From assembly GCF_009746125.1 (NCBI RefSeq), contig NZ_CP041352.1, forward strand, positions 1,205,847 to 1,269,846: DNA of 64,000 nt, read 5' to 3'. Source of the stretch: Casimicrobium huifangae. GTDB lineage: Bacteria; Pseudomonadota; Gammaproteobacteria; Burkholderiales; Casimicrobiaceae. Numbering within the stretch: the stretch's first letter is position 1; the number at the start of each line of letters is the position of its first letter. Position numbers and translations under genes: made by a program. The notes beneath the pieces are model-generated. The model saw nothing but the letters and a program-made list of their open reading frames with translations, made no database searches and was not told the origin of the DNA. This document shows, piece after piece, positions 4,369 through 46,997 of the stretch.

Positions 4369-5139
4369 TCAATTGATGTAGCCGTAGCCTTTTTGATGAT
4401 GGCGAATCTTGTTTCCATCAGCGTCAACCAGTTGTCGCCCAAGTAACTTGTGTTTCGGAAGAAGTTGTCCGATGAACTCGTACTTCGGCTTGTTCGGATC
4501 GGCGCTTCCAAAAGCCCTTGTGGACATTGTCGTCCCCGCCGGATACCACTGCAAGATCCTGTATGCCCGCACAACAACACTCTCAACGAGTGCAAGTGCC
4601 GTTGCATAAGGCAACACGCCATCTGGTCCCGGCGTGCGGGTTTTGGCCGCAACTGCGTGCCAAAACTGTCTGACGCTGTCATAGATTTCCACCTCAGTTG
4701 CTGAAGCAGAGAATGACTGGTTGACGAAGAACATCATGTAGGGTTCCTCGATATCGTTGATTGCTAACGGTTGCGCTCCATGAACACGTTCGAAGTCCGT
4801 CGCCGATACCCGACCACGCTGTGTACCGTGCCCGCGAACTTCATTGGTGAGGTTTTCTATTCCAATTGCATCGATCAACGATGCCTCCACCTCGTGGGCA
4901 ACAGTGACCGAGAGCCCATATCGAAGAATGTCCACCCTGGGTTCGACATGTGCATTTCGAATTTCATCGATTCGCGCTCGCTTGCGTTCACCCCCACCGC
5001 TGGGGCTTAGGTGATCGAAGGCGCGATTATTCGCATTGCCCTTTCCGATGTAGAAAATTTTTCCATTGCGCGGATCAACGAGGGCGTACACATAGGCCTC
5101 GATTTTCTCCTGCGATGGTTTGCTCAATTTTTTGTTCAT
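4369..5139 (-). CDS. LEM-3-like GIY-YIG domain protein (COG3680-like)
   Basis: A 256-residue protein. Residues 15-45 carry the GIY-YIG core (VYALVDPRNG, then FYIGKGNANN with conserved Gly and Lys), followed by an Arg-rich helix and a Glu (EASLID) at about residue 85. This matches the LEM-3-type GIY-YIG branch, in which the characterised animal member is a DNA endonuclease. Bacterial members are uncharacterised. The C-terminal 130 residues are unassigned. The coding region is visibly richer in A/T than its neighbours, which suggests recent acquisition. It lies 64 bases downstream of the AAA+ gene on the same strand and converges on the WYL gene. AAGGGAAG sits just upstream of the ATG as a ribosome binding site. 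Confidence 0.75.
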   Translation of the reverse strand: MNKKLSKPSQEKIEAYVYALVDPRNGKIFYIGKGNANNRAFDHLSPSGGGERKRARIDEIRNAHVEPRVDILRYGLSVTVAHEVEASLIDAIGIENLTNEVRGHGTQRGRVSATDFERVHGAQPLAINDIEEPYMMFFVNQSFSASATEVEIYDSVRQFWHAVAAKTRTPGPDGVLPYATALALVESVVVRAYRILQWYPAGTTMSTRAFGSADPNKPKYEFIGQLLPKHKLLGRQLVDADGNKIRHHQKGYGYIN

Positions 5140-5202
5140 GCTGACTTCCCTTTCATGGTGATTCGCTGGTGGCTACAAAGGCCACGTCCAGCCGGACTTC
5201 CA

Positions 5203-31938: not shown

Positions 31939-31992
31939 GATTCAGCAAAAAGCTGCCGCTGCCCGTCTGTTGCGAGGCGCGTGTACAGGTCC

Positions 31993-32021
31993 TCGACTGG
32001 CAGGCGTTTTCCGTTTACAAT
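31993..32021 (+). promoter_or_regulatory. Candidate sigma-70 promoter of rpsO
   Basis: TCGACT, 17 bases, TACAAT. The -10 hexamer matches 5 of 6 and the -35 matches 4 of 6. It is placed 115 bases upstream of the rpsO ATG, leaving a leader of about 110 bases. Confidence 0.45.
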
Positions 32022-32135
32022 CATCGGCTTACTTCGAAAAAATCATTCGTCCCTCGGGGTGCCTGCCAAGCTTCGCTGCAAAGCGATACCGGTAGCGCTT
32101 CTCTGATTGACGGCTAAAAGAGAACAGGAATCATC

Positions 32136-32405
32136 ATGGCACTCACGCCGGAACAAACCGCAAAAATCATCGCTGACCACGGCCGCTCCAAGGGCGACAC
32201 CGGTTCGACGGAAGTGCAAGTTGCACTGCTGACCGCCAACATCAACGGCCTGTCGGATCACTTCAAGGCCCACGCCAAGGATCACCACAGCCGTCGCGGC
32301 CTGCTCAAAATGGTGAACCAGCGCCGCAGCCTGCTCGCCTATCTGCGCAACACCGACCGCGCCCGCTATCAGGCGCTGATCGAAAAACTCGGTCTGCGTA
32401 AGTAA
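32136..32405 (+). CDS. rpsO: 30S ribosomal protein S15
   Basis: An 89-residue protein, exactly the normal S15 length: [38 protein letters not shown] and RRSLLAYL. S15 binds 16S rRNA early in 30S assembly. It is followed by a terminator and then pnp, the classic rpsO-pnp order. ACAGGA precedes the ATG. Confidence 0.97.
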
Positions 32406-32425: not shown

Positions 32426-32460
32426 AAAAGCCACCTTGCGTTGTCGCGGGTGGCTTTTTT
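32426..32460 (+). terminator. Rho-independent terminator after rpsO
   Basis: AAAAGCCACC pairs with GGTGGCTTTT across a 13-base loop and runs into a T tract, 21 bases after the rpsO stop. Confidence 0.8.
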
Positions 32461-32472
32461 CGTTTCGCCACT

Positions 32473-32720
32473 GAGGACGTCGGGCTCCGCCCTAAGACGA
32501 CGGCCTTGCTTCGCGGCCTAGGACGACGCTTGCTGCGCTCGCTAGGACGGGACACCGGTGGTAAGGCGGCGAGCATTTGTGCTCGTTTCAGGCCGTTACC
32601 AGGTTATTCAGTATGAAAAGCGGAGCAACACCTACTTGGTCTTGCGTCCTAGCTCGCGAAGCGAGCGCCGTCCCAGGCCGCGCAGCAGGCCGTCGTCCTA
32701 GCGCGTAGCGCGACGTCCTG
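32473..32720. repeat. Paired hairpin arrays forming a long inverted repeat in the rpsO-pnp spacer
   Basis: The left arm (32473-32550) has three units of the form GGACGNC, stem-loop, TA. Its stems are GGGC/GCCC, GGCC/GGCC and GCTTGC/GCTCGC-like. The right arm (32644-32720) is an imperfect reverse complement of it. Read on the minus strand, it gives GGACGTC-GCGC/GCGC, GGACGAC-GGCC/GGCC and GGACGGC-GCTCGC/GCGAGC. About 95 bases separate the arms. There is no plausible gene in this 357-base gap. It lies in the probable 5' leader of pnp. Confidence 0.75.
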
Positions 32721-32762
32721 CCCCCCAGTTTCCCCAACGACAAAAGAGAAAGGATCAGCCCG

Positions 32763-34895
32763 ATGCTGACCGCAACCAAAAAGTCCATCGAGTATGGCAA
32801 ACACACCCTCACGCTTGAGACCGGCGAAATCGGTCGTCAGGCCGATGCCGCCGTGCTGGTCCGTTATGGCGACACCGTGGTGCTCGTCTCCGCCGTCGCC
32901 AAGACGAGCGTGAAAGAAGGCCAGGACTTCTTCCCGCTCACCGTGGACTATCAGGAGAAGTTCTACGCCGCCGGCAAGATCCCCGGTGGCTTCTTCAAGC
33001 GCGAAGGCCGTCCGACCGAGAAAGAGACGCTGACCGCGCGCCTGATTGATCGCCCGATCCGCCCGCTGTTCCCGGATGGCTTCTACAACGAAATCCAGGT
33101 CATCGCGACCGTGATGTCGATGGACCCTGAGATCGATCCGGATATCCCCGCGATGATCGGCGCCTCTGCCGCACTGTACCTGTCGGGCGTGCCGTTCGCC
33201 GCCCCGATCGCTGCCGCCCGCGTCGGCTACGCCAATGGCGAGTACATCCTGAACCCGACCGCGACCGAACTCAAGACGTCCGAGATGGATCTCGTGGTCG
33301 CCGCGACCGAGACCGCCGTGATGATGGTCGAATCGGAAGCCGCTGAGCTGCCCGAAGACGTGATGCTCGGCGCCGTGTGGTGGGGCCACGCCCAGCAGCA
33401 GCCGGTGATCGACATGATCATGGCGCTCGGCGAAGTCGCCGGCAAGCCGGCCTGGGACTGGCAGGCTCCTGCGAAAGACCCGGCACTGGTCGCGAAGGTC
33501 GTCGAGATCGCCGGCCCGGGCTTCGATGAGGCCTACAAGATCAAGTCGAAGAGCGCGCGCAGCGCCAAGCTCAAGGAAGTCTCCGCTGCCGCCGAGGCCG
33601 CGCTGATTCCGGCCGACGCCGATACGCTGACCAAGAACAACATCAAGAACGAGCTGTTCGCCCTCGAGGCGAAGACCGTTCGCGAGCAGATCCTGCGCGG
33701 CGAGCCGCGCATCGACGGCCGCGACACGCGCACCGTGCGGCCGATCTCGATCCGCACCGGCGTGCTGCCGCGTACGCACGGGTCGGCACTGTTCACGCGT
33801 GGCGAAACGCAGGCGCTGGTCGTCGCGACGCTCGGCACCAAGCAGGACGAGCAGATCATCGACGCGCTGGGCGGCGAATACCGCGATCGCTTCATGCTGC
33901 ACTACAACATGCCGCCGTTCGCTACTGGCGAAACGGGCCGCGTTGGCTCGCCGAAGCGCCGCGAAATCGGCCACGGCCGCCTCGCCAAGCGCTCGCTGGT
34001 GACGGTGCTGCCGCCCGAAAAGGACTTCTCGTACTCGATGCGCGTCGTCTCGGAGATCACTGAATCGAACGGCTCCTCGTCGATGGCCTCGGTGTGTGGC
34101 GGCTCGCTGGCACTGATGGACGCTGGCGTGCCGCTCAAGGCCCCGGTTGCAGGCATCGCAATGGGCCTGATCAAGGAAGGCAACCGCTTCGCCGTGCTGA
34201 CCGACATCCTCGGTGACGAGGATCACCTGGGCGACATGGACTTCAAGGTGGCCGGCACCGACCGTGGCGTGACCGCGCTGCAGATGGACATCAAGATCCA
34301 GGGCATCACCAAGGAAATCATGGGCGTTGCGCTGGCTCAGGCCAACGAAGCGCGTCGTCACATCCTCGGCATCATGCACGAGGCAATGCCGCACAACCGT
34401 ACCGAGATGAGCGCCTACGCACCGCGAATGATCACCTTCAAGATCAATCCGGAGAAGATCCGCGACGTGATCGGCAAGGGCGGCGCCGTTATCCGTGCGC
34501 TGTCGGAAGAAACCCGTTGCCAGATCGACATCCAGGACGATGGCACCATCACCATCGCCTCGCCGAACGCCGACGATCTCGCCGAATGCAAGAAGCGTAT
34601 CGATGGCATCACGGCCGAAGTCGAAGTGGGCAAGGTCTACGAAGGTCCGATCATCCGCATCATGGACTTTGGCGCCGTGATCCAGCTGCTGCCGGGCCGC
34701 GATGGCCTGCTGCACATCTCGCAAATTGCCAACGAGCGTGTCAACGCCGTCACCGACTTCTTCAAGGAAGGCGACCTGGTCAAGGTCAAGGTGCTTGGCT
34801 TCGACGACAAGGGCCGCGTCAAGCTGTCGCGCAAGGTGCTGCTTGACGAGCAGGCTGCTGCTGACAATGCGGACGCAGGCAACGCACCGCAGTAA
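32763..34895 (+). CDS. pnp: Polyribonucleotide nucleotidyltransferase (PNPase)
   Basis: A 710-residue protein of normal length. It has two RNase PH-like domains (about 1-220 and 310-540, with [25 protein letters not shown] and [11 protein letters not shown]), a helical linker, a KH domain from about residue 556 ([13 protein letters not shown]) and an S1 domain from about 620 ([18 protein letters not shown]). PNPase degrades RNA 3'-5' by phosphorolysis in the cytoplasm. AAAGGA precedes the ATG. The leader carries an unusual hairpin array, and the KH-S1 end has a second copy at 43162-43629. Confidence 0.97.
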
Positions 34896-34913
34896 ACGGC
34901 TCGTTCCTTGTAG

Positions 34914-34941
34914 AAAAAACGGGGCTTCGGCCCCGTTTTTT
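34914..34941 (+). terminator. Rho-independent terminator after pnp
   Basis: AAAAAACGGGGC-TTCG-GCCCCGTTTTTT is a perfect 12-base stem with a stable TTCG loop, 19 bases after the pnp stop. The A tract makes it usable from both strands. Confidence 0.9.
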
Positions 34942-35007
34942 GTTCGTACGAGTGATTGTGCAGATCAGTCCGCTATCGCCACTCCGCCTTGTTGCCGCCG
35001 CCGCGCT

Positions 35008-36738
35008 CTACGGTGCGACTGCAATGCCACATTGCGATACAAGATAGTGACGAACGGCCGTCCAGTTGTTGCGAGGCCCGCTCAACGTGATGCCTTGCAG
35101 GACCGAAGGCCCAGACATGCCGAGCGCCACACGGGCGATGATGAGCGCGTCCGTGGTCGCGCCCACACGTCCATCGCCGTCCACATCCATGGTGCACATG
35201 CGTGCGCCGAATGGGCCACCATTGAGTCGCGCAATACAGGCCATGTTGATGCCACCGGCCCCCTCGCAGGCACCAGCAACCAGCAGTTTTCCGTCTGACT
35301 GCAGTGCCAGCGCGCGGGCGGCGTCATTTCTCTGCCCTACCGTACTCATCTCCAGATTGACACGGCCATTGCCATAGCCGGTCGGTCCGTCGAAAGAGGC
35401 ATCGAGCGCACCGTCTGGTGCGAGCCGTGCGACGCAAAAGTTGTTCTCATTGAGCAAACTGCACAGCCCGATCAGAACGATGCGCCCGTCGGGCTGGACG
35501 GCGATTGCGGTGACCTGATCGTACGTTTGCCCCATCGGGAAGACCGCGACACCGCCACCGCCGCCAGCGGACCCCTCGAAACGGTCATCCAGAGTGCCGT
35601 CGCCGTTCAGTCGCACCACCGCGAAATGACTGGCGCTGTTGGACACGACCGAACGACCCGCAATGAGCACGCGGCCATCGGGTTGCAGCGCTGCGGCGCT
35701 GACGTTTGCCTCGATCGCACCGACGGCGTAGGCGACGCGTCCAGTCCCGATGCTGCCACTGTTGTTTGAAAACGTGGCGTCAAAGCTGCCGCTGCCGGTG
35801 AGGCGTGCAGCGCAAAAACTGCGTTTGACGTTGGGATCCGTGTTCGGCCAGCAACTGCCAGTGACTACCAACCTTCCGTCTGCTTGTTGCAGCAACCCCG
35901 CAGCGTCAAAATCATAGGCACCGACCGGGAAGCGCACCAGACCATTGCTATTGGCCGGCGGCGGACCTGAGAACGTGGTATCCAGTGTCCCGTTACTGTT
36001 GAGCCGGATCACACAAGCTTCGCTGTACACGCCAGCGTTCATCGACACTCGGCAGTCACCGGAAATCACAATTTTCCCGTCTGGCTGAACCAGTACATTT
36101 CGTGCCCGTGCAATGCCCAGATTCGTGAGCAGCGCGCGACCAGCGCCATTCTGGTTCGGCCCGACAAACGTCGCGTCCAGCGTTCCGTTGGCGTTCAGGC
36201 GCGCGACGCAAAACTGGTAGCCCACCACGCCATCCCAACACTCACCGGCGAGAACCATCTTGTCATCCGCTTGCATGGCGATGGCGTTGGCCCGGTCATC
36301 GGTGGCATGTTGCGGCAGTGCGAAGCCTCCATTGCCGTTGCCCGTGGCGCCAACAGGCCCGACGAACGTTGTGTCGAGGCCGCCATTGGCGGTGAGACGC
36401 TGTACGCACATCGCCGGGTTACCGTTCGTGGCAGCGTTCGAGCAGTAACCAGCCAGCACAATGCTGCCGTTCGGCTGCGTAGCAACGGCCAGGACATAGG
36501 CGTTGCCACCGGGAACGACCGCGAGATTGGCAATCCTCCCGGTACCGCTCGCAAAACCTGCAGGAGCAGGGGCGTCGTCAAGCGTACCGGGCACGGGTTC
36601 GACGCCATGCGCCGGGTTGAGTACAAATGCGGTCAGCGCTGCCGCTATGGTCAGCGCAGTGGGGTAGTTGCAGCGCACGCTAACCGGTACGAAGCGGGAT
36701 GACAGACAACGGGCAATCGGGGGACGGGACAGTGTCAT
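35008..36738 (-). CDS. Exported delta-60 repeat beta-propeller protein with a dockerin-like tail
   Basis: A 576-residue protein. An N-terminal hydrophobic segment (ALTIAAALTAFVLNPAHG) suggests export. Seven or more delta-60 repeats follow from about residue 75 to 510, each with an LQPDGRVLIAG-type strand, a CVARLNANGTLD-type strand and FDGP-like turns. The last 60 residues contain MDVDGDGRVGATTDALIIAR, which resembles one half of a calcium-binding dockerin repeat. Delta-60 proteins are secreted or surface-bound with unknown ligands. It converges on pnp and diverges from the AraC-type regulator. Confidence 0.75.
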   Translation of the reverse strand: MTLSRPPIARCLSSRFVPVSVRCNYPTALTIAAALTAFVLNPAHGVEPVPGTLDDAPAPAGFASGTGRIANLAVVPGGNAYVLAVATQPNGSIVLAGYCSNAATNGNPAMCVQRLTANGGLDTTFVGPVGATGNGNGGFALPQHATDDRANAIAMQADDKMVLAGECWDGVVGYQFCVARLNANGTLDATFVGPNQNGAGRALLTNLGIARARNVLVQPDGKIVISGDCRVSMNAGVYSEACVIRLNSNGTLDTTFSGPPPANSNGLVRFPVGAYDFDAAGLLQQADGRLVVTGSCWPNTDPNVKRSFCAARLTGSGSFDATFSNNSGSIGTGRVAYAVGAIEANVSAAALQPDGRVLIAGRSVVSNSASHFAVVRLNGDGTLDDRFEGSAGGGGGVAVFPMGQTYDQVTAIAVQPDGRIVLIGLCSLLNENNFCVARLAPDGALDASFDGPTGYGNGRVNLEMSTVGQRNDAARALALQSDGKLLVAGACEGAGGINMACIARLNGGPFGARMCTMDVDGDGRVGATTDALIIARVALGMSGPSVLQGITLSGPRNNWTAVRHYLVSQCGIAVAP

Positions 36739-36893
36739 GTTGGGGGAAGGTGGATGTTGGCGGAGAAAATGTAGATGCGACCCGGCGCAGCACGGTAGTC
36801 AAAAAGCGAAAACAGTAGGCGAAAAGCGCAAGCATCCGACCAGGTGTCGCAAAATGCGCGCAAGCAGATTCCACTGTGTCGCCAGACGGCCAA

Positions 36894-38366
36894 ATGTTCC
36901 CGAGAATGGTTGACGATGTAATGTCCGACGCTGCCGCGCTCGCCCGTGCTGCCGAGTTCGCCGCGTTCAACGGACAGCTCGAAGACGCCCAGCAACTACT
37001 TGAGCGTTGCACGGACAGCTTGCCGCAGGAGCCCGCAGCGGAGGGTGCGGTGGCGCTGGCGCGCGCCGAACTTGCCTTTCAGCGGTCAAACTATGCCGAG
37101 GCTGCTGCACTTGCCGACCGCGCAGCCACGCGACTCCTGCTCGTTGGCGATGCCGAGGGCGAACTGCGGGCGCTGGAGCTGCACCCGCGCGTCTGGGCAC
37201 GGCATGGTGAGGAAGAGCGTGTGCAGCGTCGCTGCGAGCAACTGCTCGAGCGCTGGCGCGCGAGGACCGGGAACGAGGCTGTCGAAGGTCAGGTTCGATG
37301 TCTCACCCTCATTACCTTCATGCACGCACGCCGGTTTCGATACGAGGATGGTATTGCAACCGGTAGTCTCGCGGTGCGTCTTGCCCGCGACACTGCGCGC
37401 ATGCATTCCCTGCTTCCGCGCGCGGCCAACGCACTTGCGGGGTTGCATTTCGCCAAAGCCTGCGCCCTGCATCCGGCGACCGGATGGGCTTCGCACATTA
37501 CGTCCCTGGCGCCGACGGACCACCCTGATGTGTTGGAACACTGCAGAGTCGCGATGGCGCTGCTCGGCGAGGTGCGACCGTACTCGAAAGCCGGCGGCAA
37601 CCAGTATCAGGATGCGCTGATCGGATCGAACATGGGGCAATTGCAGGTACTGATGGGAGCCCCTGACGCCGCGCTTCCAGACATGCAGCGTTTTCTAGAC
37701 GTCAGTCGGCAACGCCAAAACCGTTACATGGAGGCCGATGCGCTGCAGGCCATCGGCTGGGCGCATCTGGTGGGTGGACGATTGCCCGACGCGCAGGCAG
37801 CGCTGATGCATGCACTCGGTATTGCTGCATCGCTGCAGGCCGCACCGCTGCTGATCACCATTCACTACGACCTGTCGACGATTCTGGAGCGGGCGGGCGA
37901 GGTTGCGCGGGCGTTGCACCACTATCGCGAGTACGCACGACTCTGGCGACGGGCGCACCAGCAACTGGCGGCTCAGCCGTCACCGCATGCGCGACGCCGG
38001 CTCGAGCCCTTCTACCTTAAGCGCGCGGAGGCACTGATCCGCGCATCGCTGCCTCATTCGCCGTCAGCTGAAGAGATCGCCCAGCACTCTGGCGCGTCCA
38101 TTCGAGCGGTACAACTGGCGTTTCGCGAGTATCGTGGAATGACACCGCACAAGTATTCGCTCGCGTTGCGCTATCAGGCTGCGCACGACGCGCTGGCATC
38201 AAGGCAGGCGGCACGCGGCATTGGTCAGATTTGCAGCGAACTCGGATTTGATGACCCCTCACGATTTGCGCGTGAGTTTCGCAAGCGCTTTGGCCTGCTT
38301 CCGTCCGCGTTCAGTCGTGATGCAGAGCCAGGCCGGAATCGGGCTTCGGCCGCAGGTGGCGTGTGA
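36894..38366 (+). CDS. AraC-family regulator with a TPR-like sensor region
   Basis: About 490 residues. Residues 10-370 are helical and repeat-like (AEFAAFNGQLEDAQQLLER; SNMGQLQVLMGAPDAALPDM; ALQAIGWAHLVGGRLPDAQA), resembling a tetratricopeptide solenoid. The C-terminal 100 residues form the AraC DNA-binding domain with two helix-turn-helices (AEEIAQHSGASIRAVQLAF; RGIGQICSELGFDDPSRFA) and end FRKRFGLLPSAFSR. Several in-frame starts exist (36876 GTG; 36894, 36906 and 36921 ATG) and none has a strong ribosome binding site. The three secreted proteins downstream are plausible targets. Confidence 0.8.
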   Translation: MFPRMVDDVMSDAAALARAAEFAAFNGQLEDAQQLLERCTDSLPQEPAAEGAVALARAELAFQRSNYAEAAALADRAATRLLLVGDAEGELRALELHPRVWARHGEEERVQRRCEQLLERWRARTGNEAVEGQVRCLTLITFMHARRFRYEDGIATGSLAVRLARDTARMHSLLPRAANALAGLHFAKACALHPATGWASHITSLAPTDHPDVLEHCRVAMALLGEVRPYSKAGGNQYQDALIGSNMGQLQVLMGAPDAALPDMQRFLDVSRQRQNRYMEADALQAIGWAHLVGGRLPDAQAALMHALGIAASLQAAPLLITIHYDLSTILERAGEVARALHHYREYARLWRRAHQQLAAQPSPHARRRLEPFYLKRAEALIRASLPHSPSAEEIAQHSGASIRAVQLAFREYRGMTPHKYSLALRYQAAHDALASRQAARGIGQICSELGFDDPSRFAREFRKRFGLLPSAFSRDAEPGRNRASAAGGV

Positions 38367-38571
38367 GCCTGACTCCGACTTGCGATTCCTGCCTGACGCG
38401 GCATCATCCCTTGCGTAGAGCGGAACATTGCAGCCGTGCGACGCACGTGTACGCCGCAACAGGCAAAAAGCGCAAGTCGCGTGACTGGCCGCCAAAAAGG
38501 CATGTGGGCGAGTGCGTGGCCACAGCCCTGACGATGCAGATCATTCATACTCTACCGGAGGGGACAGTCAC

Positions 38572-39348
38572 ATGGTTAACAAACATGGAGCTACGGTCGC
38601 GCGCCTGGCGTGGCTCGTCGGCGCGATGCTGGGCGCGACGATTGCTGCGGCTGCGGACGACCGTATCGAGGCGGTGTCGCTGATGCGCGACGACGGCGGC
38701 AAACCGGGCGCCATTGTTGCCCAGTTCACACCACAAGATCGCAAGCAGCACTTCGCCGTCAAGTTGCGCAAGCTGGAACTCGGCAAGAACCGCTTCCAGG
38801 CCCGTTTTGTTGGAGTCGAAACGGCCGCGGGCAACAACGTTGAAGTGTTCAGGACCGGCGACATCGGCAACTCACTGATTGCCAACACCATTACCGCGCA
38901 ATTGTCCCTGCCCCGCGACTGGCCGCTCGGACGCTACGCTATCGAAGTGGTGATGAATGACCAGCCCATTGGGAGGCGCGAATACATTGTGTCGCCGGAG
39001 TGGTCGAAGCAGGCTGTCGAACGATGGATCCTGTACGCCGACGACGGCAAAGGCAATCCGACAGAACGCAAGCTCAGTGCGTTCAGCACGAAACAGCGCA
39101 CACTGCATTTCGAAGCCCAGACGTCCGGCTATGTGCCACGCGGCGCGCGCGTGACTTGGGTGTTGCGCACTCAGGCGGGGCAGGAGGTCATGCGTGGAGA
39201 CAACACCGTTGGCAAAGACTCCCAGGTATTCAATCGACTTACTTCGTTTGTCACATTGCCGCGGGACTGGCCAATCGGTGGCTACACCATGCAACTTCTG
39301 GACGGAACGCGGGTTGTCGGCGAACACAAATTCAACGTGACGCAATGA
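38572..39348 (+). CDS. Exported protein with two related beta-sandwich-like repeats
   Basis: 258 residues from ATG at 38572 behind GGAGGGG. A signal peptide (ARLAWLVGAMLGATIAAAA) is followed by two similar halves of about 110 residues. Each has a long strand-rich segment and then the same closing motif: SLPRDWPLGRYAIEV in the first half and TLPRDWPIGGYTMQL in the second. Each half ends with a short beta tail (GRREYIVS, GEHKFNVT). The internal duplication is plain, but I do not recognise the family. The stop overlaps the next start by four bases (ATGA). Confidence 0.65.
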   Translation: MVNKHGATVARLAWLVGAMLGATIAAAADDRIEAVSLMRDDGGKPGAIVAQFTPQDRKQHFAVKLRKLELGKNRFQARFVGVETAAGNNVEVFRTGDIGNSLIANTITAQLSLPRDWPLGRYAIEVVMNDQPIGRREYIVSPEWSKQAVERWILYADDGKGNPTERKLSAFSTKQRTLHFEAQTSGYVPRGARVTWVLRTQAGQEVMRGDNTVGKDSQVFNRLTSFVTLPRDWPIGGYTMQLLDGTRVVGEHKFNVTQ

Positions 39349-40523
39349 CAAGCACACGACGCAAGGCAGGGGCGGTCACGGCGGCTTTGCTGCCGCTGTT
39401 GTCGGCGGCGGCAGGCATACTGCACGCCGCAGAACCCCCCGTTTTCCCCCAGAGCACGACTGGAGCAACGATCGCCACGCGCGTTGCGCCAATGGCGCAT
39501 GGGCGCGTTGTGCACTTTGCCCTCACGCCAGACCGGACCCATGCCGTGCTGTTCGAGCGCATCGCGCCGCCCGGTGCCAACGCCGTGTGGCAACTCCGGG
39601 TGCTTGATGACAGGGGGGGCACGTTGCGTGAGCGCAGGCTGCGTCCTGGCTACGACCCCACGCAACCCGACATGTACTTCACGGATCGCGGTGAACTATT
39701 GATTGACGACGGCAGCTACTTCTATGTTGTGGATCTCCACACGTTGCGTACTGAGCAGACGCCACAATGCCGCAAGCACGCTTATCCCGGTCGCGATGCG
39801 CATGCTGCGGAGATTGAAACGCAGCTCCGCAGCGATCGCACGGCGGAGCTTGCCCGTCTTGCCCGGGCGCATGGTGTGCGCGAGGCGGATGTGGAAGGCG
39901 AGGATCTTCGCACGTTGCCGGTACCGATCGTCGAGGCGCGACGGCGCTGGGCACAGACACTGGGCGAGCAAAAGAGCCGACTGATAGAAGCGCGTTACAT
40001 GGCGCTGATTGAGCGATTTGCAGCGGCTACGCCAGAACTGGTGGGTATTCAGGTGGAACGGCCACAGCTCACGTCCTACTACGTTCGTGTGAACGCTGAC
40101 GGCAAGTACTGGTACTGCGATCTCGAAGGCCGTGCGCAGAAGTACGCCGTGCGCTGGGCGCGGCGCGCAGGGGCCAAGGGTGTGACGCCGCTCTCCCTGA
40201 CGCGCGGCGAACTCACCCGCGAAGGCGACGTTGTCCATGACGGCCCGGCGTCGATTCAGGTGCTCAAGGCCTCCCGTACGACGCCGTGGACGTGCTCGTG
40301 GCAGGTGGGGTGCGTGGACCGCTCTGACTATCGCTTGCGGCTGGCTGGATTGCCAGGGCAGGCCGCGCCTGTCGAGGTGGCGACGAAAGATGGCAGCCTA
40401 TCGCGCGGACTAGCAGGCGGTGGCGCGTTCCGGTTCGCCAATGGGCACTGGTTGCTGGAGCACGACGGGCTGTACCTTTTCACCGCGGCATCCGCGATTC
40501 CCAGTGGCAAATCGACGCCATGA
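39345..40523 (+). CDS. Exported protein of unknown function
   Basis: 392 residues from ATG at 39345, overlapping the preceding stop by four bases. A signal peptide (AVTAALLPLLSAAAGILHAA) is followed by strand-rich sequence with propeller-like segments (HFALTPDRTHAVLFERI; LRVLDDRGGTLRERRL; FTDRGELLIDDGSYFYVVD). A charged helical insertion lies near residues 140-230, and six Cys are spread in the mature chain. No family is recognised. It was probably co-transcribed with the gene before it. Confidence 0.6.
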   Translation: MTSTRRKAGAVTAALLPLLSAAAGILHAAEPPVFPQSTTGATIATRVAPMAHGRVVHFALTPDRTHAVLFERIAPPGANAVWQLRVLDDRGGTLRERRLRPGYDPTQPDMYFTDRGELLIDDGSYFYVVDLHTLRTEQTPQCRKHAYPGRDAHAAEIETQLRSDRTAELARLARAHGVREADVEGEDLRTLPVPIVEARRRWAQTLGEQKSRLIEARYMALIERFAAATPELVGIQVERPQLTSYYVRVNADGKYWYCDLEGRAQKYAVRWARRAGAKGVTPLSLTRGELTREGDVVHDGPASIQVLKASRTTPWTCSWQVGCVDRSDYRLRLAGLPGQAAPVEVATKDGSLSRGLAGGGAFRFANGHWLLEHDGLYLFTAASAIPSGKSTP

Positions 40524-40838
40524 CCCCGCATCATGAAAATCCCCACTCTACAGGCGTTCACGGCGATCTGCGGATCGCTCGCCGTCGCAGCACAAGATTG
40601 GGCGACCCGGGTACGCACACCACGGCAGGTCGGCAGGTCTGCGCTGTCCCATGTCAAGCAGCGGCGCGGGCGCGACAGTGCTGCGCCCCGGCGCGTCTTG
40701 CCGCACGACGTCGCCGCAGCCATGACGTTGGTGCGCATCGCGCTCATCGAATTTGCCTGGCGTGACGAAAGCGCCGCAGCGATTGCCCACGTCCAGCGCC
40801 ATACGAGCACTGGCAGGACTGTTGATCGCACGCCGGCG

Positions 40839-41951
40839 ATGCGACCACACGTTCAACGTCGACCGCGACAGAAGCACTGTGGCGCGGTTGTCGCAGTGGT
40901 CTTGAGCGTATGGCTCGTGCTGTTGTTGATGCCCGCGACGGTCTCTGCCCAGCAAATGACTGCCCAGCCCACAAGCGCTGCTTGGTCGGGGGCATCGGTC
41001 ATTCATCGCGCCGATCATCCGCGCGTGGTCAGCACCGACCGTGATCGCATGGTACTTCTCGTGGCACCATTTCTGCGTGGAGTGCAGGACGGTACGAGTG
41101 GATTGCTTTCGCTGCATCTTGCGATGCCCGCCATTGCGCCTGAAATACTGTTCCGCAGTACCACCGACTTGCTGCCGAACCACCTCGCGCCCGTTCTGGA
41201 TGATGGCACCCATGTCTACTGGCTGAGTGGCCTACGCATCATGCAGACCAGCAAGACCACCCGACAGTCTCGACAGTTGAGCGACAAAGGTGCGCTGGCG
41301 ATGGCCGTGCACGGAAACGCGATTTACACCTTCAATCACAACAATGAGCGCAAGTTGTTGCGCGTTGACTCCAAGACCGGAGAGGTGCGTGAAGTTGCAA
41401 AACTGCCCTTCGTGGCAAGCTCGCTGCACGTCGATGCCAATGGCGCGTGGCTGCTGACCACGCCCTCACCGCTTCGGCAAGTCACTGCGATTGTGCGCTT
41501 CGACTTCGGCAATCGCCAATGGGCAGCCGTGTACGCGTCTGCCGATGCGCAGACGCAAATTCGCGCTCTGGTACCGGTGGGCGAAGCGAACACCATGCAG
41601 TCCGACGCGACGTTCCGCAGCATGTATTTCGTCGAACGCAATCTCGTGAAAAACCGTGCGGTCGTACGACATCTCAACGTACTCACGGGCATCATCACTG
41701 CCCTGGACATTGATGCGATTGATGAGCTTTCACCTATCAAGGCGGATGAGTTAGCGCTTTACTACTTTGCCCCGGAGAGTCGCCAACTCAATTCGCCGAT
41801 GTTGCTGTATCGGTACTCGGACGGCAGCGGCAAGCAGCTGGTGAGTCGAGGCACCACGTGGCCAACTAGCATGACCATACAGAGGTTCGATAGCAAAAGC
41901 CGCGCTCTCGTTTGGACTGACATCACTTGCGTGTATTCGCTCAGTTGGTAG
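40839..41951 (+). CDS. Exported propeller-like protein of unknown function
   Basis: 370 residues if started at ATG 40839, where a strong signal peptide begins (basic RPHVQRRPRQKH, then AVVAVVLSVWLVLLLMPATVSA). The frame is open to ATG 40533, ten bases after the preceding gene. That longer version would bury the signal sequence, although its own N-terminus (TLQAFTAICGSLAVAAQ) is also hydrophobic, so a frameshift or gene remnant in the 315-base gap 40524-40838 is possible. The mature part has strand repeats with YWLSG, GNAIYTFN, KLLRVDSKTGEVREV and GAWLLTT, as in WD/YVTN-like propellers. It ends VWTDITCVYSLSW. Confidence 0.55.
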   Translation: MRPHVQRRPRQKHCGAVVAVVLSVWLVLLLMPATVSAQQMTAQPTSAAWSGASVIHRADHPRVVSTDRDRMVLLVAPFLRGVQDGTSGLLSLHLAMPAIAPEILFRSTTDLLPNHLAPVLDDGTHVYWLSGLRIMQTSKTTRQSRQLSDKGALAMAVHGNAIYTFNHNNERKLLRVDSKTGEVREVAKLPFVASSLHVDANGAWLLTTPSPLRQVTAIVRFDFGNRQWAAVYASADAQTQIRALVPVGEANTMQSDATFRSMYFVERNLVKNRAVVRHLNVLTGIITALDIDAIDELSPIKADELALYYFAPESRQLNSPMLLYRYSDGSGKQLVSRGTTWPTSMTIQRFDSKSRALVWTDITCVYSLSW

Positions 41952-42217
41952 TGGCATTGAACGACTGTCGAGCCATGCGCCATACAAGGCGCAGCACGTC
42001 CGTGCACCTAAGTCATCGCCGGATTTCCGGACGAACACAGAGTTTGTACTCGTTGGTCTCTGGGCGGTTTCCTGGCGCGTCGCCGCAACGGTTGTCGTGG
42101 TGGGTGGCTTTATCGCCGGCGGGATACATTGACTAGGGACAGGCCGGCGGGCTGCGCCACACCGGATGACCTGTTCGCGTGGTGGCGTCGCAGGATGCCA
42201 CGGGAGGGCCACCTGAG

Positions 42218-42698
42218 TCAGTATTCCAGCGATATTCGCAGTATGTCTTCGTAGGTTCCGCCCGGCAGGTCGACATAATCGCACACGCGGATCCGGGCGT
42301 CCAGTCTTACCTCGGCGGACCGCTGCCAACCTGACGCGATCCTGCGGTCACCCTGAGTTGCAAGCTCGTAGGGCATAGCCTCACCACTGAACCGACGCAA
42401 GGTGCGCATGCCACATCGCGGATCAAATGCTCGTCCGTTGTCTACCAAAACACGGTAAGTCGTGCCGCGAGTGCAAGCCACTCGAACCAGACCGAAAGCA
42501 GCGCCATCGGTCGCGCGTCCCGGGTCGAACCCCCCCCGAACGGCACGTCGCCGGAGGATTCGATCCGGCACCGCGGCACAACGACTGCGCTCACCTCAAA
42601 TGTTGCCAGGTGCTCCTGCGCATGCGCGGCGCCACCGCGTTCGCGCTGGCGAGAACGACAAGGAAAATTCGAAGGCTTCGCGCAGTCGACAGGCTCAC
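42218..42698 (-). pseudogene. Frameshifted spore coat U (SCPU) domain protein gene
   Basis: Three frames on the minus strand together spell one SCPU protein. First comes a signal peptide from GTG at 42698 (SLRIFLVVLASANA). A shift leads to AAHAQ-EHLATFEVSAVVVPRC. A second shift leads to AFGLVRVACTRGTTYRVLVDNG and the closing LPGGTYEDILRISLEY. The second shift falls at a run of eight G (eight C on the + strand, 42530-42537). SCPU proteins are secreted pilus-like or adhesin components exported by chaperone-usher systems; no usher is near. Two shifts favour a decayed gene, but the homopolymer leaves room for phase variation or a sequencing error. The 266 bases downstream of the preceding gene show no gene. 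Confidence 0.6.
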
Positions 42699-42904
42699 GG
42701 CAGCGCGCGTTTCGCTTCGAGAAGTCGGGCGGACAAGAGGCGCTGGATCGGCGGAGGCGCTGGTATGGTCTGAATCTCCCGGTGTGCTGCGGCCCGGTTT
42801 TCGCGGTCCAGCGCAGCGTCAATCCGTACAACCGCAATGGTGATTGCTCGTCGCAAGGACGCAGGGCGCAGTCGCAATCGCTGCAAGGGAAACGCCGACG
42901 GCAA

Positions 42905-43151
42905 TTGCCGGGATTAAGGCAACGCTGAACAAGCCGTCGGAATCGGCGAGATGAGGTGCGAGGGTAGAAGATCAAGGAAGCGGGGTACGAATTCATCGAA
43001 ACTCGCCCCGGGAGGTGCACGCGGCGAGCGCGAAAGCGTCCCCGGCGCCCGCAGCGGACGCACCCATGCCAAGCTCCTGCGAGCCAGGTACAGATTGGCC
43101 AGACCCAGCACCACGAGCGAACGCGTGGCGTTCTTGGCTAGTTGCACGATA
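42905..43151 (-). mobile_element. IS5-family insertion sequence remnant (transposase C-terminus and one end)
   Basis: Reading from 43147 on the minus strand, [24 protein letters not shown] matches the C-terminal end of IS5-type transposases (usually YRGLAKN...LANLYLARR). The rest of the transposase is missing, and one extra base appears to break the YRG part. About 210 bases further on, GGCAACGCTGAACAAGCC (plus strand, near 42918) looks like the terminal inverted repeat. It closely resembles the ends of the MITE at 58569. The truncated side abuts the pnp-derived copy at 43152-43162. Confidence 0.6.
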
Positions 43152-43161
43152 CGCGCCGCGC

Positions 43162-43629
43162 ATGGTTACTTTCAAGATCAATCCGGAGAAGATCCGCGAC
43201 GTGATCGGCAAGGGCGGCGCCGTCATCCGCGCGCTGTCGGAAGAAACCCGCTGCCAGATCGACATTCAGGACGATGGCACGATTACCATCGCTTCGCCGA
43301 ACGCCGATGACCTCGCCGAATGCAAAAAGCGTATCGACGGCATCACGGCCGAAGTGGAAGTGGGCAAGGTCTACGAAGGCCCGATCATCCGCATCATGGA
43401 CTTCGGCGCCGTGATCCAGCTGCTGCCTGGGCGTGACGGCCTGCTGCACATCAGCCAGATCGCCCATGAGCGCGTCAACGCCGTCACCGACTTCTTCAAG
43501 GAAGGCGACCTGGTCAAGGTCAAGGTGCTTGGCTTCGACGACAAGGGCCGCGTCAAGCTGTCGCGCAAAGTGCTGCTTGACGAGCAGGCGGCGGCGGACA
43601 ACGGTGGCGCTGGCAACACGCCACAGTAG
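43162..43629 (+). CDS. Stand-alone KH-S1 RNA-binding protein derived from PNPase
   Basis: 155 residues equivalent to PNPase residues 556-710: a KH domain with [13 protein letters not shown], then an S1 domain ([18 protein letters not shown]). No catalytic RNase PH domain is present. Against pnp I count about 30 silent codon changes and only five amino-acid changes (Ile to Val at residue 2, Asn to His in the S1 domain, three in the C-terminal tail). A 95-base stretch is identical. The ATG at 43162 corresponds to Met556 of PNPase. The frame is open to GTG 43015, but that part is IS5 remnant. No good ribosome binding site precedes 43162. Its own terminator follows. It may be a functional RNA-binding protein or a very recent remnant of a second pnp. 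Confidence 0.6.
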
Positions 43630-43652
43630 TCACGCTGGTTATGACCGAAAAG

Positions 43653-43677
43653 CGGGGCGCGAGCCCCGTTTTTTTTT
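43653..43677 (+). terminator. Rho-independent terminator after the KH-S1 gene
   Basis: CGGGGC-GCGA-GCCCCG followed by nine T, 24 bases after the stop. It is the counterpart of the pnp terminator: the stem is the same, while loop and flanks have changed. Confidence 0.85.
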
Positions 43678-43756
43678 GCGAAATTTCCGATGCTGGACGC
43701 CGTGACGAACCCACAGCGTTTATCCTTCCACCTACCTCAGACCATTGGGTTTACTC

Positions 43757-44215
43757 ATGAGATTCAACGCTCTACCAGCATTTGCCCGTCGATCATGCCT
43801 GCTGGCAATTGCCAGCATGTCTGCTGGCTTCTTTGCCTCGGCCTCAGCGCAGGATCTCGCCAGAAGCGTTGTGGGGTCCTGGAGGCTGGTCTCGCATACC
43901 GTCACTACGGCCGGCACGACGTTTGATTCACATTCGGCTCTCCTGCAGCAGCGCCCGTGCGCAGCCAAGATTCGCTACAACATTGGGGCTGACGGAACGT
44001 ATCGCCTCGATGCTTCGGCGAGTGACTGTGACGAGAAGTACAAGTCTGCGCAACAGAAACTGTATGCCAAGACGAAGTGGAAGCTCGATGGCAACAAGAT
44101 CACTACGTCGTCGACGAATTTCGCTGTCGGCCAGACGTACAGCGCCTCAATCTCGGGTAGTCGCATGACGTGGATAGGAACCGAGGGGCAGGGGACACTG
44201 GTGTTCGAACGCTGA
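43757..44215 (+). CDS. Exported lipocalin-like domain protein
   Basis: 152 residues from ATG at 43757, with a signal peptide (SCLLAIASMSAGFFASASAQ). The mature part begins VVGSWRLVSHTVTT, the usual opening of the lipocalin-like family, and closes with SRMTWIGTEGQGTLVFER. Two Cys (CAAKIRYN, SDCDEKY) could form a disulfide. The ligand is unknown. It follows the KH-S1 terminator by 80 bases and appears to be its own unit. Confidence 0.65.
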   Translation: MRFNALPAFARRSCLLAIASMSAGFFASASAQDLARSVVGSWRLVSHTVTTAGTTFDSHSALLQQRPCAAKIRYNIGADGTYRLDASASDCDEKYKSAQQKLYAKTKWKLDGNKITTSSTNFAVGQTYSASISGSRMTWIGTEGQGTLVFER

Positions 44216-44422
44216 TGCAAGCGGCGCGGCGCAACAGGATAGATCGCCTTTCCGGTCGCCACCCCGCCGCAACCGATCTCGCAGAAGCTGCCGAATTGCA
44301 GCTCATGTTGACCTTGTGGCTCGATCGGTGCTGGCAGCACTTGCACAGAATGCGGTGCAGATCGGTGCCCTTACGTTGAACAGCAGGTGCTCACGGGCGC
44401 GGGCTCAACTTTGCAGGACTCC

Positions 44423-44968
44423 ATGAACACACGGGAACAAGCCGCTTTGCTGACAAGCCTGAAGGCACGGTTCGCGAACAACCCGGCGCGCCACAAGGGG
44501 CTGAATTGGGATGCAGTTCAGGCGCGCCTCGCCAGCTCCCCCAAAGCGCTGCAGGTACTTGCCGAAATGGAGCGTACCGGCGGCGAACCCGACGTGATCG
44601 CCTACGACAAAGCGACTGACCAATACGTCCTTTGCGATTGTTCTGCCGAAAGTCCGGCGGGTCGGCGAAGCCTCTGTTTCGACGGAAAAGCGCTTGCCGC
44701 ACGCAAGGAGAACAAGCCGAAGGGCAGCGCGCTGGATGCGGCACAGGCCATGGGTGTCGAGCTGATGACCGAGCAGCAGTACCGCCAGTTGCAGCAGCTT
44801 GGTCAATTCGACCTCAAGACGTCCAGCTGGGTGGCCACACCAGACGAGGTGCGTGCCCTCGGCGGCGCGCTCTTCTGCGACCGTCGCTACGGCAAGGTGT
44901 TCGTTTATCACAACGGTGCCGAGTCGTACTACGCCGCCCGCGGTTTTCGCGGTATGTTGCGCGTTTAG
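44423..44968 (+). CDS. DUF4256 family protein
   Basis: 181 residues from ATG at 44423 (the frame is open 12 codons more). Typical DUF4256 segments: LLTSLKARFANNPARHKGLNW, ALQVLAEMERTGGEPDVI, YVLCDCSAESPAGRRSLCFD, SALDAAQAMGVELMTEQQY and TSSWVATPDEVRALGGALFCDRRYG. It is cytoplasmic. The family is widespread in bacteria with no established activity; conserved Cys and Asp residues hint at an enzyme or metal site. About 200 bases on either side contain nothing I recognise. Confidence 0.85.
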   Translation: MNTREQAALLTSLKARFANNPARHKGLNWDAVQARLASSPKALQVLAEMERTGGEPDVIAYDKATDQYVLCDCSAESPAGRRSLCFDGKALAARKENKPKGSALDAAQAMGVELMTEQQYRQLQQLGQFDLKTSSWVATPDEVRALGGALFCDRRYGKVFVYHNGAESYYAARGFRGMLRV

Positions 44969-45206
44969 CCAATACCTCCAGCACGGCACAGCCCTCACCA
45001 CGACGCGGAGAGCGGGTGTTCCCTTGCTTTCCGAGACCAGACGTCTGTATGTCGCAGTCTTGGCGCCCTTGTTACCGGCAGTGTTGGTTTCAGCGTAGAG
45101 TGGAGCGCCTAAACTGCGGCAAAAGCAAGTTTCAAACGATAAATTGAATCGGTCGTAAGTCACAATCCAACTCAACCCGTTTTTGGTTGTTGCGAAGGAG
45201 AAAACC

Positions 45207-46997
45207 ATGCCGACTTACACCCCGCCGCTGCGCGACATGCGCTTTGTGATGGAAGAGTTGCTCGATGTGCCCGGCGAGTTGAAGGCGCTCCCTGCCCATG
45301 CCGAGAACGACATGGACACCATCATGGCGATCGCCGAAGAGGGCGGCAAGTTCGCCGCTGAGGTGCTGTTCCCCCTGAACCAGTCCGGCGATCGCGAAGG
45401 CTGCGTGCTCGACCAGAAGACGCACGAGGTCAAGGCGCCCAAGGGTTACAAGGAAGCCTACAAGCAGTTCGTCGAAGGCGGCTGGGCAGCGCTGTCGTGT
45501 GACCCCGAGTACGGTGGCCAGGGCCTGCCTATCGTGGTCAACCAGTGCGTCTACGAGTTCCTCAATTCGGCGAATCAGGCGTGGACGATGTATCCGGGCC
45601 TCACGCACGGCGCCTACGAATGCCTGCACGAGCACGGCACGCCCGAGCAAAAGGCGCTCTACCTGCCCAAGATCACGACCGGCGAGTGGACCGGTACCAT
45701 GTGCCTGACCGAGCCGCACTGCGGCACCGATCTCGGCCTGCTGCGCACCAAGGCGGAGCCGAACGCGGACGGCAGCTACACCATCACCGGCAACAAGATT
45801 TTCATCAGCTCTGGCGAGCATGACCTCGCCGAGAACATTGTGCACCTTGTGCTAGCACGCCTGCCCGATGCGCCGCAGGGCTCGAAAGGCATCTCGCTGT
45901 TCATCGTGCCGAAGTTCATCGCCAATCCGGACCAGTCGATCGGCGAGCGCAACAAGATTTACTGCACCGGCCTCGAACACAAGATGGGCATTCACAGCAA
46001 TGCCACCTGCCAGATCGCGCTTGACGGCGCAAAAGGCTGGCTGGTTGGACAGCCCAACAAGGGGCTCGCCGCGATGTTCGTGATGATGAATGCCGCGCGC
46101 ATCGGCGTTGGCATGCAGTCGCAGGGCCTGACTGAGGTCGCCTACCAGAATGCATTGGCCTACGCCAAGGACCGCATCCAGATGCGCTCGCTGGCCGGCC
46201 CCAAGAACCCCGACAAGCCAGCCGACTCGATCCTCGTGCACCCCGATGTGCGCAAGATGCTGCTGACCGCCAAGGCCTATGCCGAGGGTGGCCGCGTGCT
46301 GTCGTTGTACTGCGCCCTGCTGATCGACAAGGAGCTCAATCACCCCGACGAAGCGGTGCGCAAGGAATGCGCGGAGATGGTGGCGCTGCTCACCCCCATC
46401 GTCAAAGCCTTCATCACCGACAACGGCTGGATCGCCACCTCGCACTGCATGCAGGTGTTCGGCGGCCACGGCTACATCGCCGAATGGGGCATGGAACAGT
46501 TCGTGCGCGACGCCCGCATCAACATGATTTACGAAGGCACCAACACCATCCAGTCGCTGGATCTGCTGGGCCGCAAGGTGCTCGGCAACCAGGGCGCGAC
46601 GCTCAAGAAGCTCGGCGCGATCATGGAAGACTTTGCCGAAAGCTGCGAAGGCGACGAGGCGATGCAGGAGTTCATCGGCCCGATGCTGAAAGCAGCCGAG
46701 CTGTGGTCCACGCTGACCTTCGAAATCGGCAGTCAGGCCATGAAAAACCCGGAAGTGGTCGGCGCCGCTGCAGTGGACTACATGCGCGTTGCTGGTCACA
46801 CGGTGTTCGCGTTCTGGTTTGCGAAGATGGCGAAGATCGCGCTTGCGAAGAAGGATTCGGGCGATCCGTTCTACGCGGCCAAGCTGCAGACGGCGCGCTT
46901 CTACTTCGCCAAGCTGTTGCCCGAAATCGAGAGCTGCGCGATCACGGCGCGCGCGGGCCTCAAGCCGCTGATGGAGACGGAGCTGGCGCTGGCCTAG
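45207..46997 (+). CDS. Acyl-CoA dehydrogenase, long form (DmdC-like)
   Basis: 596 residues from ATG at 45207 behind GAAGGAG. It has the acyl-CoA dehydrogenase fold with the signature MCLTEPHCGTDLGLLRTKA, the FAD segment KIFISSGEHDL, and the late motif VFGGHGYIAEWGMEQFVRDARI with INMIYEGTN, where the catalytic Glu is expected. The extra N-terminal domain (about 60 residues) and C-terminal domain (about 130 residues) mark the long branch that includes 3-methylmercaptopropionyl-CoA dehydrogenase. Many Burkholderiales members act on other acyl-CoAs, so substrate is uncertain. Monocistronic with a terminator. Confidence 0.9.
   Translation: MPTYTPPLRDMRFVMEELLDVPGELKALPAHAENDMDTIMAIAEEGGKFAAEVLFPLNQSGDREGCVLDQKTHEVKAPKGYKEAYKQFVEGGWAALSCDPEYGGQGLPIVVNQCVYEFLNSANQAWTMYPGLTHGAYECLHEHGTPEQKALYLPKITTGEWTGTMCLTEPHCGTDLGLLRTKAEPNADGSYTITGNKIFISSGEHDLAENIVHLVLARLPDAPQGSKGISLFIVPKFIANPDQSIGERNKIYCTGLEHKMGIHSNATCQIALDGAKGWLVGQPNKGLAAMFVMMNAARIGVGMQSQGLTEVAYQNALAYAKDRIQMRSLAGPKNPDKPADSILVHPDVRKMLLTAKAYAEGGRVLSLYCALLIDKELNHPDEAVRKECAEMVALLTPIVKAFITDNGWIATSHCMQVFGGHGYIAEWGMEQFVRDARINMIYEGTNTIQSLDLLGRKVLGNQGATLKKLGAIMEDFAESCEGDEAMQEFIGPMLKAAELWSTLTFEIGSQAMKNPEVVGAAAVDYMRVAGHTVFAFWFAKMAKIALAKKDSGDPFYAAKLQTARFYFAKLLPEIESCAITARAGLKPLMETELALA

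What the first reader, a model, noticed from the sequence alone, without database searches (positions are those of the whole stretch)
42905..43677. Free-standing KH-S1 copy of the PNPase tail, joined to an IS5 remnant and kept almost free of amino-acid changes
Seen: 43162-43629 duplicates pnp codons 556-710 with about 30 silent and five replacement codon changes, a 95-base identical block, and its own terminator with a preserved stem. The upstream edge is truncated IS5 transposase sequence. Inference: either selection keeps a separate RNA-binding protein, or the fragment is the end of a second pnp acquired from a relative and then cut by the IS. The silent changes may predate the truncation, and the identical block suggests gene conversion.
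Basis: partly seen in the sequence, partly recalled or inferred. Interest (0 to 1): 0.8.

Follow-up and report, generated by a model that had tools for sequence, protein, structure and literature searches.

The report
Displaced pnp gene tail, recombination scar
The spare tail of the RNA-decay gene pnp looks like a leftover of DNA exchange between related species rather than a new RNA-binding gene, and comparison of two species shows it trading sequence with the working pnp.

Summary
43150-43628 is an ungapped 91% copy of the 3' end of pnp (34416-34894), fused to the 3' end of an IS5-family element. The standalone-gene reading gains no support. Divergence of fragment from pnp (dS 0.34-0.40, dN/dS 0.04-0.07) resembles that between pnp genes of different species, so the silent changes can predate truncation. 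A second species, G011, has the same joint. Between G000 and G011, 33174-45349 (12.2 kb) is nearly identical, while the aligned part of the upstream flank is 73-91% identical. Of 37 differences in that block, 36 fall in the two pnp tails. Fourteen consecutive variable sites are swapped: G000's pnp carries what G011's fragment carries, and the reverse. In nine of the 14 other genus members with pnp found, an acyl-CoA dehydrogenase gene follows after an interval of very different length. G015 carries a separate pnp-tail fragment there. Best account: imported DNA joined homologously on one side and illegitimately on the other, leaving a second tail; the cassette later moved between species, and the tails exchange sequence. 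Expression, excision and the reads behind the swap could not be tested. A new example of a known process.

The parts
32763..34895 (+). intact pnp (710 aa PNPase)
34416..34895 (+). 3' part of intact pnp, repeat copy 1
   Evidence: 91% to copy 2
34646..34739 (+). segment of pnp (codons 628-659) whose 14 variable sites are swapped with the fragment between G000 and G011
33174..45349 (.). block near-identical between G000 and G011: 37 differences in all, 36 of them in the two pnp tails
35083..41987 (.). cargo (borders approximate), not found at this locus by DNA search in the other genus members except G011; five larger ORFs
35008..36738 (-). DUF5122 beta-propeller protein
36876..38366 (+). AraC-type regulator
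38512..39348 (+). hypothetical protein
39330..40523 (+). hypothetical protein without Pfam match (start codon not determined; the listed ORF begins at 39000)
40533..41951 (+). hypothetical protein without Pfam match
41988..42917 (.). DNA native to the pnp downstream interval (84-85% to G012, near pnp and before acad); holds an SCPU-domain ORF 42218-42571 (-)
42918..43149 (-). IS5-family remnant: terminal repeat GGCAACGCTGAACAAG plus 3' end of transposase
43148..43150 (.). illegitimate joint IS interior | pnp, about 2 nt microhomology (TA), read by eye
43150..43629 (+). pnp tail fragment (KH and S1 domains), repeat copy 2
43380..43473 (+). the 14 sites at which the G000 and G011 fragments differ, all swapped with pnp
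43653..43677 (+). stem plus T-run (terminator-like) behind the fragment
   Evidence: seen in sequence; stem listed on the minus strand only
43745..44215 (+). lipocalin-like ORF, found in G000 and G011 only, 2 of 80 genomes
44387..44968 (+). DUF4256 ORF, 6 of 80 genomes
45183..46997 (+). acyl-CoA dehydrogenase (acad), the gene that follows the pnp interval in nine other genus members

Best explanation
The fragment is a recombination scar: a second pnp 3' end left when DNA from a related lineage was built into the pnp-acad interval. One side joined by homology (pnp or acad). The other joined illegitimately, fusing the interior of a resident or incoming IS5 copy to pnp codon 552-553. The working gene kept a complete tail and terminator. 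Afterwards the cassette (most of pnp, cargo, fragment, start of acad) passed between two species by ordinary homologous recombination. The two tails, direct repeats 8.7 kb apart, exchanged a patch of 94-212 bp reciprocally; one excision of the 8.7 kb segment in one identical stretch and re-entry in another, or a double crossover between sister copies, would give this. SHOWN: duplication, IS joint, position before acad, near-identical 12.2 kb block in G011, differences confined almost wholly to the tails, swap pattern in the assemblies, separate fragment in G015. INFERRED: one homologous plus one illegitimate side, which copy is original, direction of transfer, circle intermediate, uptake by natural transformation.
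For: (1) Fragment-pnp divergence is near between-species size (dS 0.34-0.40, against 0.41-0.54 to G012), with dN/dS 0.04-0.07. (2) acad follows pnp in nine of 14 other genus members with pnp found, at about 0.2 kb (G016) to 10.3 kb (G011), so the fragment lies inside a variable interval. (3) 41988-42917 is native downstream DNA, IS5 sits in it behind TTAA, and the IS is cut inside its transposase with about 2 nt shared with pnp. (4) G011 has the same joint; 33174-45349 is near-identical where the aligned upstream flank is 73-91%. (5) 36 of 37 differences in that block lie in the tails; 14 consecutive variable sites are swapped. (6) In the tree of codons 621-659 G000 pnp pairs with G011 fragment (90) and G011 pnp with G000 fragment (70); outside it pnp pairs with pnp (92) and fragment with fragment (98). 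(7) G015 has a separate fragment (from codon 591, 87% to its own pnp) before acad. (8) Second tails are rare elsewhere: 1 of 250 genomes drawn from the order, G000 itself. (9) A ComEC-type protein is present, weak.
Against: No donor with the fragment's sequence was found; outside the swap, pnp and fragment are each other's nearest relatives (support 80), which an old within-lineage duplication would also give. The homologous side of the founding event cannot be identified because the later transfer overwrote the pnp and acad flanks. Eight further sites in pnp (codons 605-685) differ between G000 and G011 and need at least one more event. The swapped segment is only 117 bases in the tree, and the divergent G016 falls beside one of the swapped pairs there. 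G011 is a draft of about 80 contigs, so mis-threading of the two repeats cannot be excluded without reads. ComEC also occurs in E. coli (control). The G005 second hit is a 141-base contig overlap, not a second copy.
Confidence: 0.72

Rival explanations
1. Old tandem duplication of the cell's own pnp region, followed by IS5 insertion and a deletion joining IS interior to the second pnp copy.
For: Outside the swapped segment pnp and fragment are sister to each other before G012 (support 80); IS5 is at the joint.
Against: dS 0.34-0.40 with no broken invariant residue would need a second pnp that stayed whole for long. In 64 family genomes, 52 of them with a hit, the only second tail hits were those of G000, G011, G015 and the G005 contig overlap. 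The cargo and the lipocalin gene are new to the locus, which a duplication alone does not bring.
Confidence: 0.17
2. A free-standing KH-S1 RNA-binding protein maintained by selection.
For: Open frame intact, KH_1 and S1 both score above the Pfam cut-off; none of 71 residues invariant in 15 genus pnp genes is broken in the fragment; fragment-pnp dN/dS (0.057, 0.065 over codons 556-709) lies slightly below the eight intact pairs compared (0.075-0.153).
Against: The same conservation is expected if truncation is recent. The start is internal Met556 with no Shine-Dalgarno seen upstream by eye; the promoter scan found none on the plus strand in 42800-43800. The G015 fragment breaks 4 of the 71 invariants; in leave-one-out 14 of 15 intact genes break 0-2 and the divergent G016 breaks 9. 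All fragment differences between G000 and G011 are swaps with pnp.
Confidence: 0.05
3. The reciprocal swap is an assembly artefact of the G011 draft (this concerns the swap only, not the fragment).
For: G011 is a draft; two similar repeats 8.7 kb apart are hard for short reads.
Against: In G011 the copies differ at codons 620 and 628 (23 identical bases between) and at 659 and 677 (53 between), so reads of ordinary length would link the phases; contig ends of this draft match one IS end over 54-55 bases, which hints at a word length of about 55. Eight non-swap differences in pnp also exist.
Confidence: 0.15

Closest known systems
Displaced 3' ends in Vibrio cholerae type VI effector arrays (PMC5361080, passages seen)
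   Same: Proposed there: an incoming module anchors by homology on one side, joins illegitimately on the other, and shifts the old gene's 3' end downstream; such arrays then move between strains by homologous recombination.
   Different: Here the gene is a housekeeping RNase that stays whole, the cargo is unrelated to it, the joint runs through an IS, and the two tails exchange sequence.
Homology-facilitated illegitimate recombination (abstract start of PMC3240628 in the listing; passages of PMC2884548)
   Same: One homologous and one illegitimate end; the passages name S. pneumoniae, A. baylyi and P. stutzeri, the abstract E. coli conjugation.
   Different: Inferred here from anatomy; the homologous end is not identified.
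Minimal mobile elements of Neisseria (recalled; search listing only)
   Same: Variable cassettes between two conserved genes, moved by recombination in the flanks, no recombinase.
   Different: Part of the interval is a duplicated gene tail.
Integrase islands that replace a gene's 3' end and displace the old end (recalled)
   Same: Intact gene, cargo, displaced 3' fragment in direct orientation.
   Different: No integrase or other recombinase recognised in the proteins scanned; the repeat is 479 bp and diverged, not a short identical att site.

Membership tests
Insertion by homology-facilitated illegitimate recombination | one joint without homology or with microhomology | tested here: met
   IS interior | pnp joint with about 2 nt shared, read by eye
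Insertion by homology-facilitated illegitimate recombination | the other joint in homologous DNA | tested here: inconclusive
   borders of the block at 33174 (pnp) and 45349 (acad) are homologous but belong to the later transfer
Integrase-driven genomic island | integrase or other recombinase gene in the cargo | tested here: not met
   10 proteins of the region scanned against Pfam, no recombinase; small ORFs not scanned
Integrase-driven genomic island | short identical att repeats | tested here: not met
   repeat is 479 bp at 91%; within it a 95-base identical block
Minimal mobile element | different cargo between the same two conserved genes in relatives | tested here: met
   pnp-acad interval about 0.2 to 10.3 kb, different content where compared
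IS5-family insertion sequence | terminal inverted repeats and IS5 transposase | tested here: met
   related complete copies: inverted repeats of 16-20 nt about 1.17 kb apart in G000, 319-320 aa transposases over the NCBIfam IS5 cut-off; the remnant itself keeps one end only
Maintained KH-S1 protein gene | expression and phenotype | not testable with these tools
   no RNA or protein data
Maintained KH-S1 protein gene | purifying selection after truncation | tested here: inconclusive
   no post-truncation substitutions other than swaps between the two copies known

The most novel reading that the evidence does not exclude
The two pnp tails act as homology-based attachment sites: RecA-type recombination between them releases an 8.7 kb circle, leaves an intact pnp whichever point is used, and lets the circle re-enter pnp of the same or another species. 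A housekeeping gene's end would thereby serve as a recombinase-free port for cargo in this genus.
Probability: 0.25. Interest if true: 0.65.

Novelty: new member of a known kind. Interest (0 to 1): 0.42.

Why it matters
It weakens a tempting reading as a new RNA-binding gene. It also gives a recent natural example (12.2 kb nearly identical between two species whose aligned flank differs by 9-27%) in which all but one of the differences lie in a pair of direct repeats. Such a pair makes it possible to ask how often cargo enters and leaves next to an important gene without any recombinase, and it warns that low dN/dS in a gene fragment can be inherited from the time when it was whole.

Tried and rejected
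Free-standing selected gene: no support beyond what recent truncation gives. Mobile unit of IS5 plus pnp tail: rejected, only one copy of the joint in the genome. G005 as a third case: its second hit begins a contig that overlaps the pnp contig by exactly 141 identical bases, so it is the same copy. G087, whose only tail hit has a short open frame: the hit touches the contig end, so it is a cut pnp, not a free tail. Donor search with the DUF4256 and lipocalin proteins in 80 genomes: the lipocalin was found in no genome but G000 and G011, so no relative showed the order pnp-lipocalin-DUF4256. A plasmid origin: 14 records matched, the best covering 81% of the query at 72.6%. Literature: listings for pnp with genomic island, pnp with partial duplication, and displaced/orphan/excision showed no description of this arrangement; only the listings were seen. 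PMC3784515: outline and abstract only. Organism name: the own record may be left out of the named collection, so not determined.

Full report
WHAT IS THERE. The window lies in a 4.47 Mb single-contig genome (G000). pnp occupies 32763-34895, and 43150-43628 repeats its last 479 bases without a gap at 91%. The copy reads codons 556-710 with 30 silent and 5 replacement codon changes, a stop, and behind it a stem with a T-run. The longest identical run, 31 codons, was reached in 87 of 20,000 shuffles, which points to local conversion. To the left lies the 3' end of an IS5-family element in antisense. Its terminal repeat starts at 42918 after TTAA, and its transposase is cut near the C-terminus at about 43149. 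The family name rests on complete related copies in G011 and G000, both over the NCBIfam IS5 cut-off. The joint shares about two bases (TA) between IS and pnp, read by eye.

POSITION. Of 17 genus genomes searched, 15 gave a pnp tail; G003 and G004 gave none. In nine of the 14 others an acyl-CoA dehydrogenase gene (acad) follows pnp: G008, G010, G011, G012, G013, G014, G015, G016, and G005 across a contig overlap. The distance from pnp to acad is about 0.2 kb in G016, 0.8 in G013, 1.7 in G008, 2.4 in G005, 2.8 in G010, 3.6 in G015, 6.2 in G014, 8.8 in G012 and 10.3 in G000 and G011. In G002, G006, G007 and G009 acad was not found in the 7-16 kb held beyond pnp, and in G001 the contig ends. In G012 DNA matching 41988-42703 follows about 0.2 kb behind pnp, and that matching 42710-42917 lies shortly before acad. 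So 35083-41987 is cargo, with approximate borders, and the IS sits in DNA native to the interval. The cargo encodes a DUF5122 beta-propeller protein, an AraC-type regulator and three proteins without a clear family; no recombinase was recognised among the ten proteins scanned. The lipocalin-like gene right of the fragment occurs in 2 of 80 genomes searched (G000 and G011), the DUF4256 gene in 6 of 80, G000 included.

A SECOND SPECIES HAS IT. G011 carries the same joint, cargo and fragment. Where the window aligns with its contig between 1 and 31206, identity is 73-88%, with several stretches of kilobases not aligned; it is 91% at 31992-32405, then almost perfect. Differences per stretch: 32742-33400, 13; 33401-34415, 0; pnp tail, 22; 34896-43149, 1 in 8254; fragment, 14; 43629-45200, 0; 45201-46499, 91; 46500-46906, 4. 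The block 33174-45349 was therefore shared very recently between the two species, and nearly all of its differences lie in the two tails.

THE SWAP. At 14 consecutive variable sites (34646-34739, codons 628-659) G000 pnp equals G011 fragment and G011 pnp equals G000 fragment. Further left (to codon 610) and right (from codon 691) the ordinary pattern pnp with pnp, fragment with fragment prevails, with eight single-copy differences in pnp between codons 605 and 685. A tree of codons 621-659 groups G000 pnp with G011 fragment (90) and G011 pnp with G000 fragment (70); outside it the pairs are pnp-pnp (92) and fragment-fragment (98). The segment is only 117 bases, its deeper branches are weak, and the divergent G016 falls beside the second pair. 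One excision of the 8.7 kb segment by recombination in one identical stretch and re-entry in another gives this pattern, as does a double exchange between sister copies. The eight further sites need something more, for example a retained piece of a resident allele.

NO SIGN OF A SELECTED PROTEIN BEYOND INHERITED CONSERVATION. dN/dS of fragment against pnp is 0.057 (G000) and 0.065 (G011) over codons 556-709, and 0.041 and 0.051 over codons 556-700. For the eight pairs of intact tails that I compared it ran from 0.075 to 0.153 and from 0.045 to 0.114. The fragment thus lies at or slightly below the low end, which I do not take as evidence of extra constraint because few replacements are counted. 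The fragment breaks none of 71 residues invariant in 15 intact genes, which fits recent truncation as well as constraint. The G015 fragment, with dS 0.41 to its own pnp, breaks 4. Leave-one-out breaks for the intact genes were 0-2 in 14 of 15 and 9 in the divergent G016. All fragment differences between the two species are swap sites, so no other later substitution exists to test.

HOW COMMON. Second tail hits were seen in 4 of 64 family genomes, 12 of which gave no hit. The one in G005 is a contig overlap, leaving G000, G011 and G015, all in this genus. In 250 genomes drawn from the order, at least 95% complete, 1 had two hits at the threshold, G000 itself; 246 had one and 3 none; G011 and G015 were not among those drawn. 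G015's fragment starts at a different codon, lies directly behind a different, 428-aa gene and has its own stem with T-run, so I count two founding events.

MECHANISM. Imported DNA that pairs with pnp or acad on one side and is joined illegitimately on the other leaves two pnp tails without ever breaking pnp. Passages that I saw describe the same logic as a proposal for V. cholerae effector arrays (PMC5361080) and for variable segments in general (PMC2884548). The founding event here cannot be reconstructed further: later transfer replaced the flanks, no donor was found, and pnp and fragment are each other's nearest relatives outside the swap (support 80), so an old tandem duplication remains possible. 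A ComEC-type protein is present, but the same search also rings in E. coli, so it says little.

VERDICT. Observation confirmed; the interpretation as a selected RNA-binding gene is not supported, its alternative is largely right. The value lies in the variable pnp-acad interval with two separate tail fragments and in the exchange between tails.

Noticed in passing
G015:C37 (L049), fragment at locus 4872-5213 minus strand: A separate pnp-tail fragment follows directly on the stop codon of a 428-aa ORF (L049 5217-6503, minus; by eye it looks secreted and dockerin-like at its C-terminus, no family scan made) and precedes acad.
   Followed up: partly
window 32440-32720: The rpsO-pnp spacer (rpsO named by eye) holds repeated motifs such as ctaggacg/gctcgc and is not aligned between G000 and G011.
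   Followed up: no
window 45201-46906: acad is mosaic between G000 and G011: 91 differences in 1299 bases to 46499, then 4 in 407 up to the contig end.
   Followed up: no
G011 contig ends (L043-L048): Six G011 contigs end inside or at the end of the same IS5-family element, so it is probably multicopy there.
   Followed up: partly
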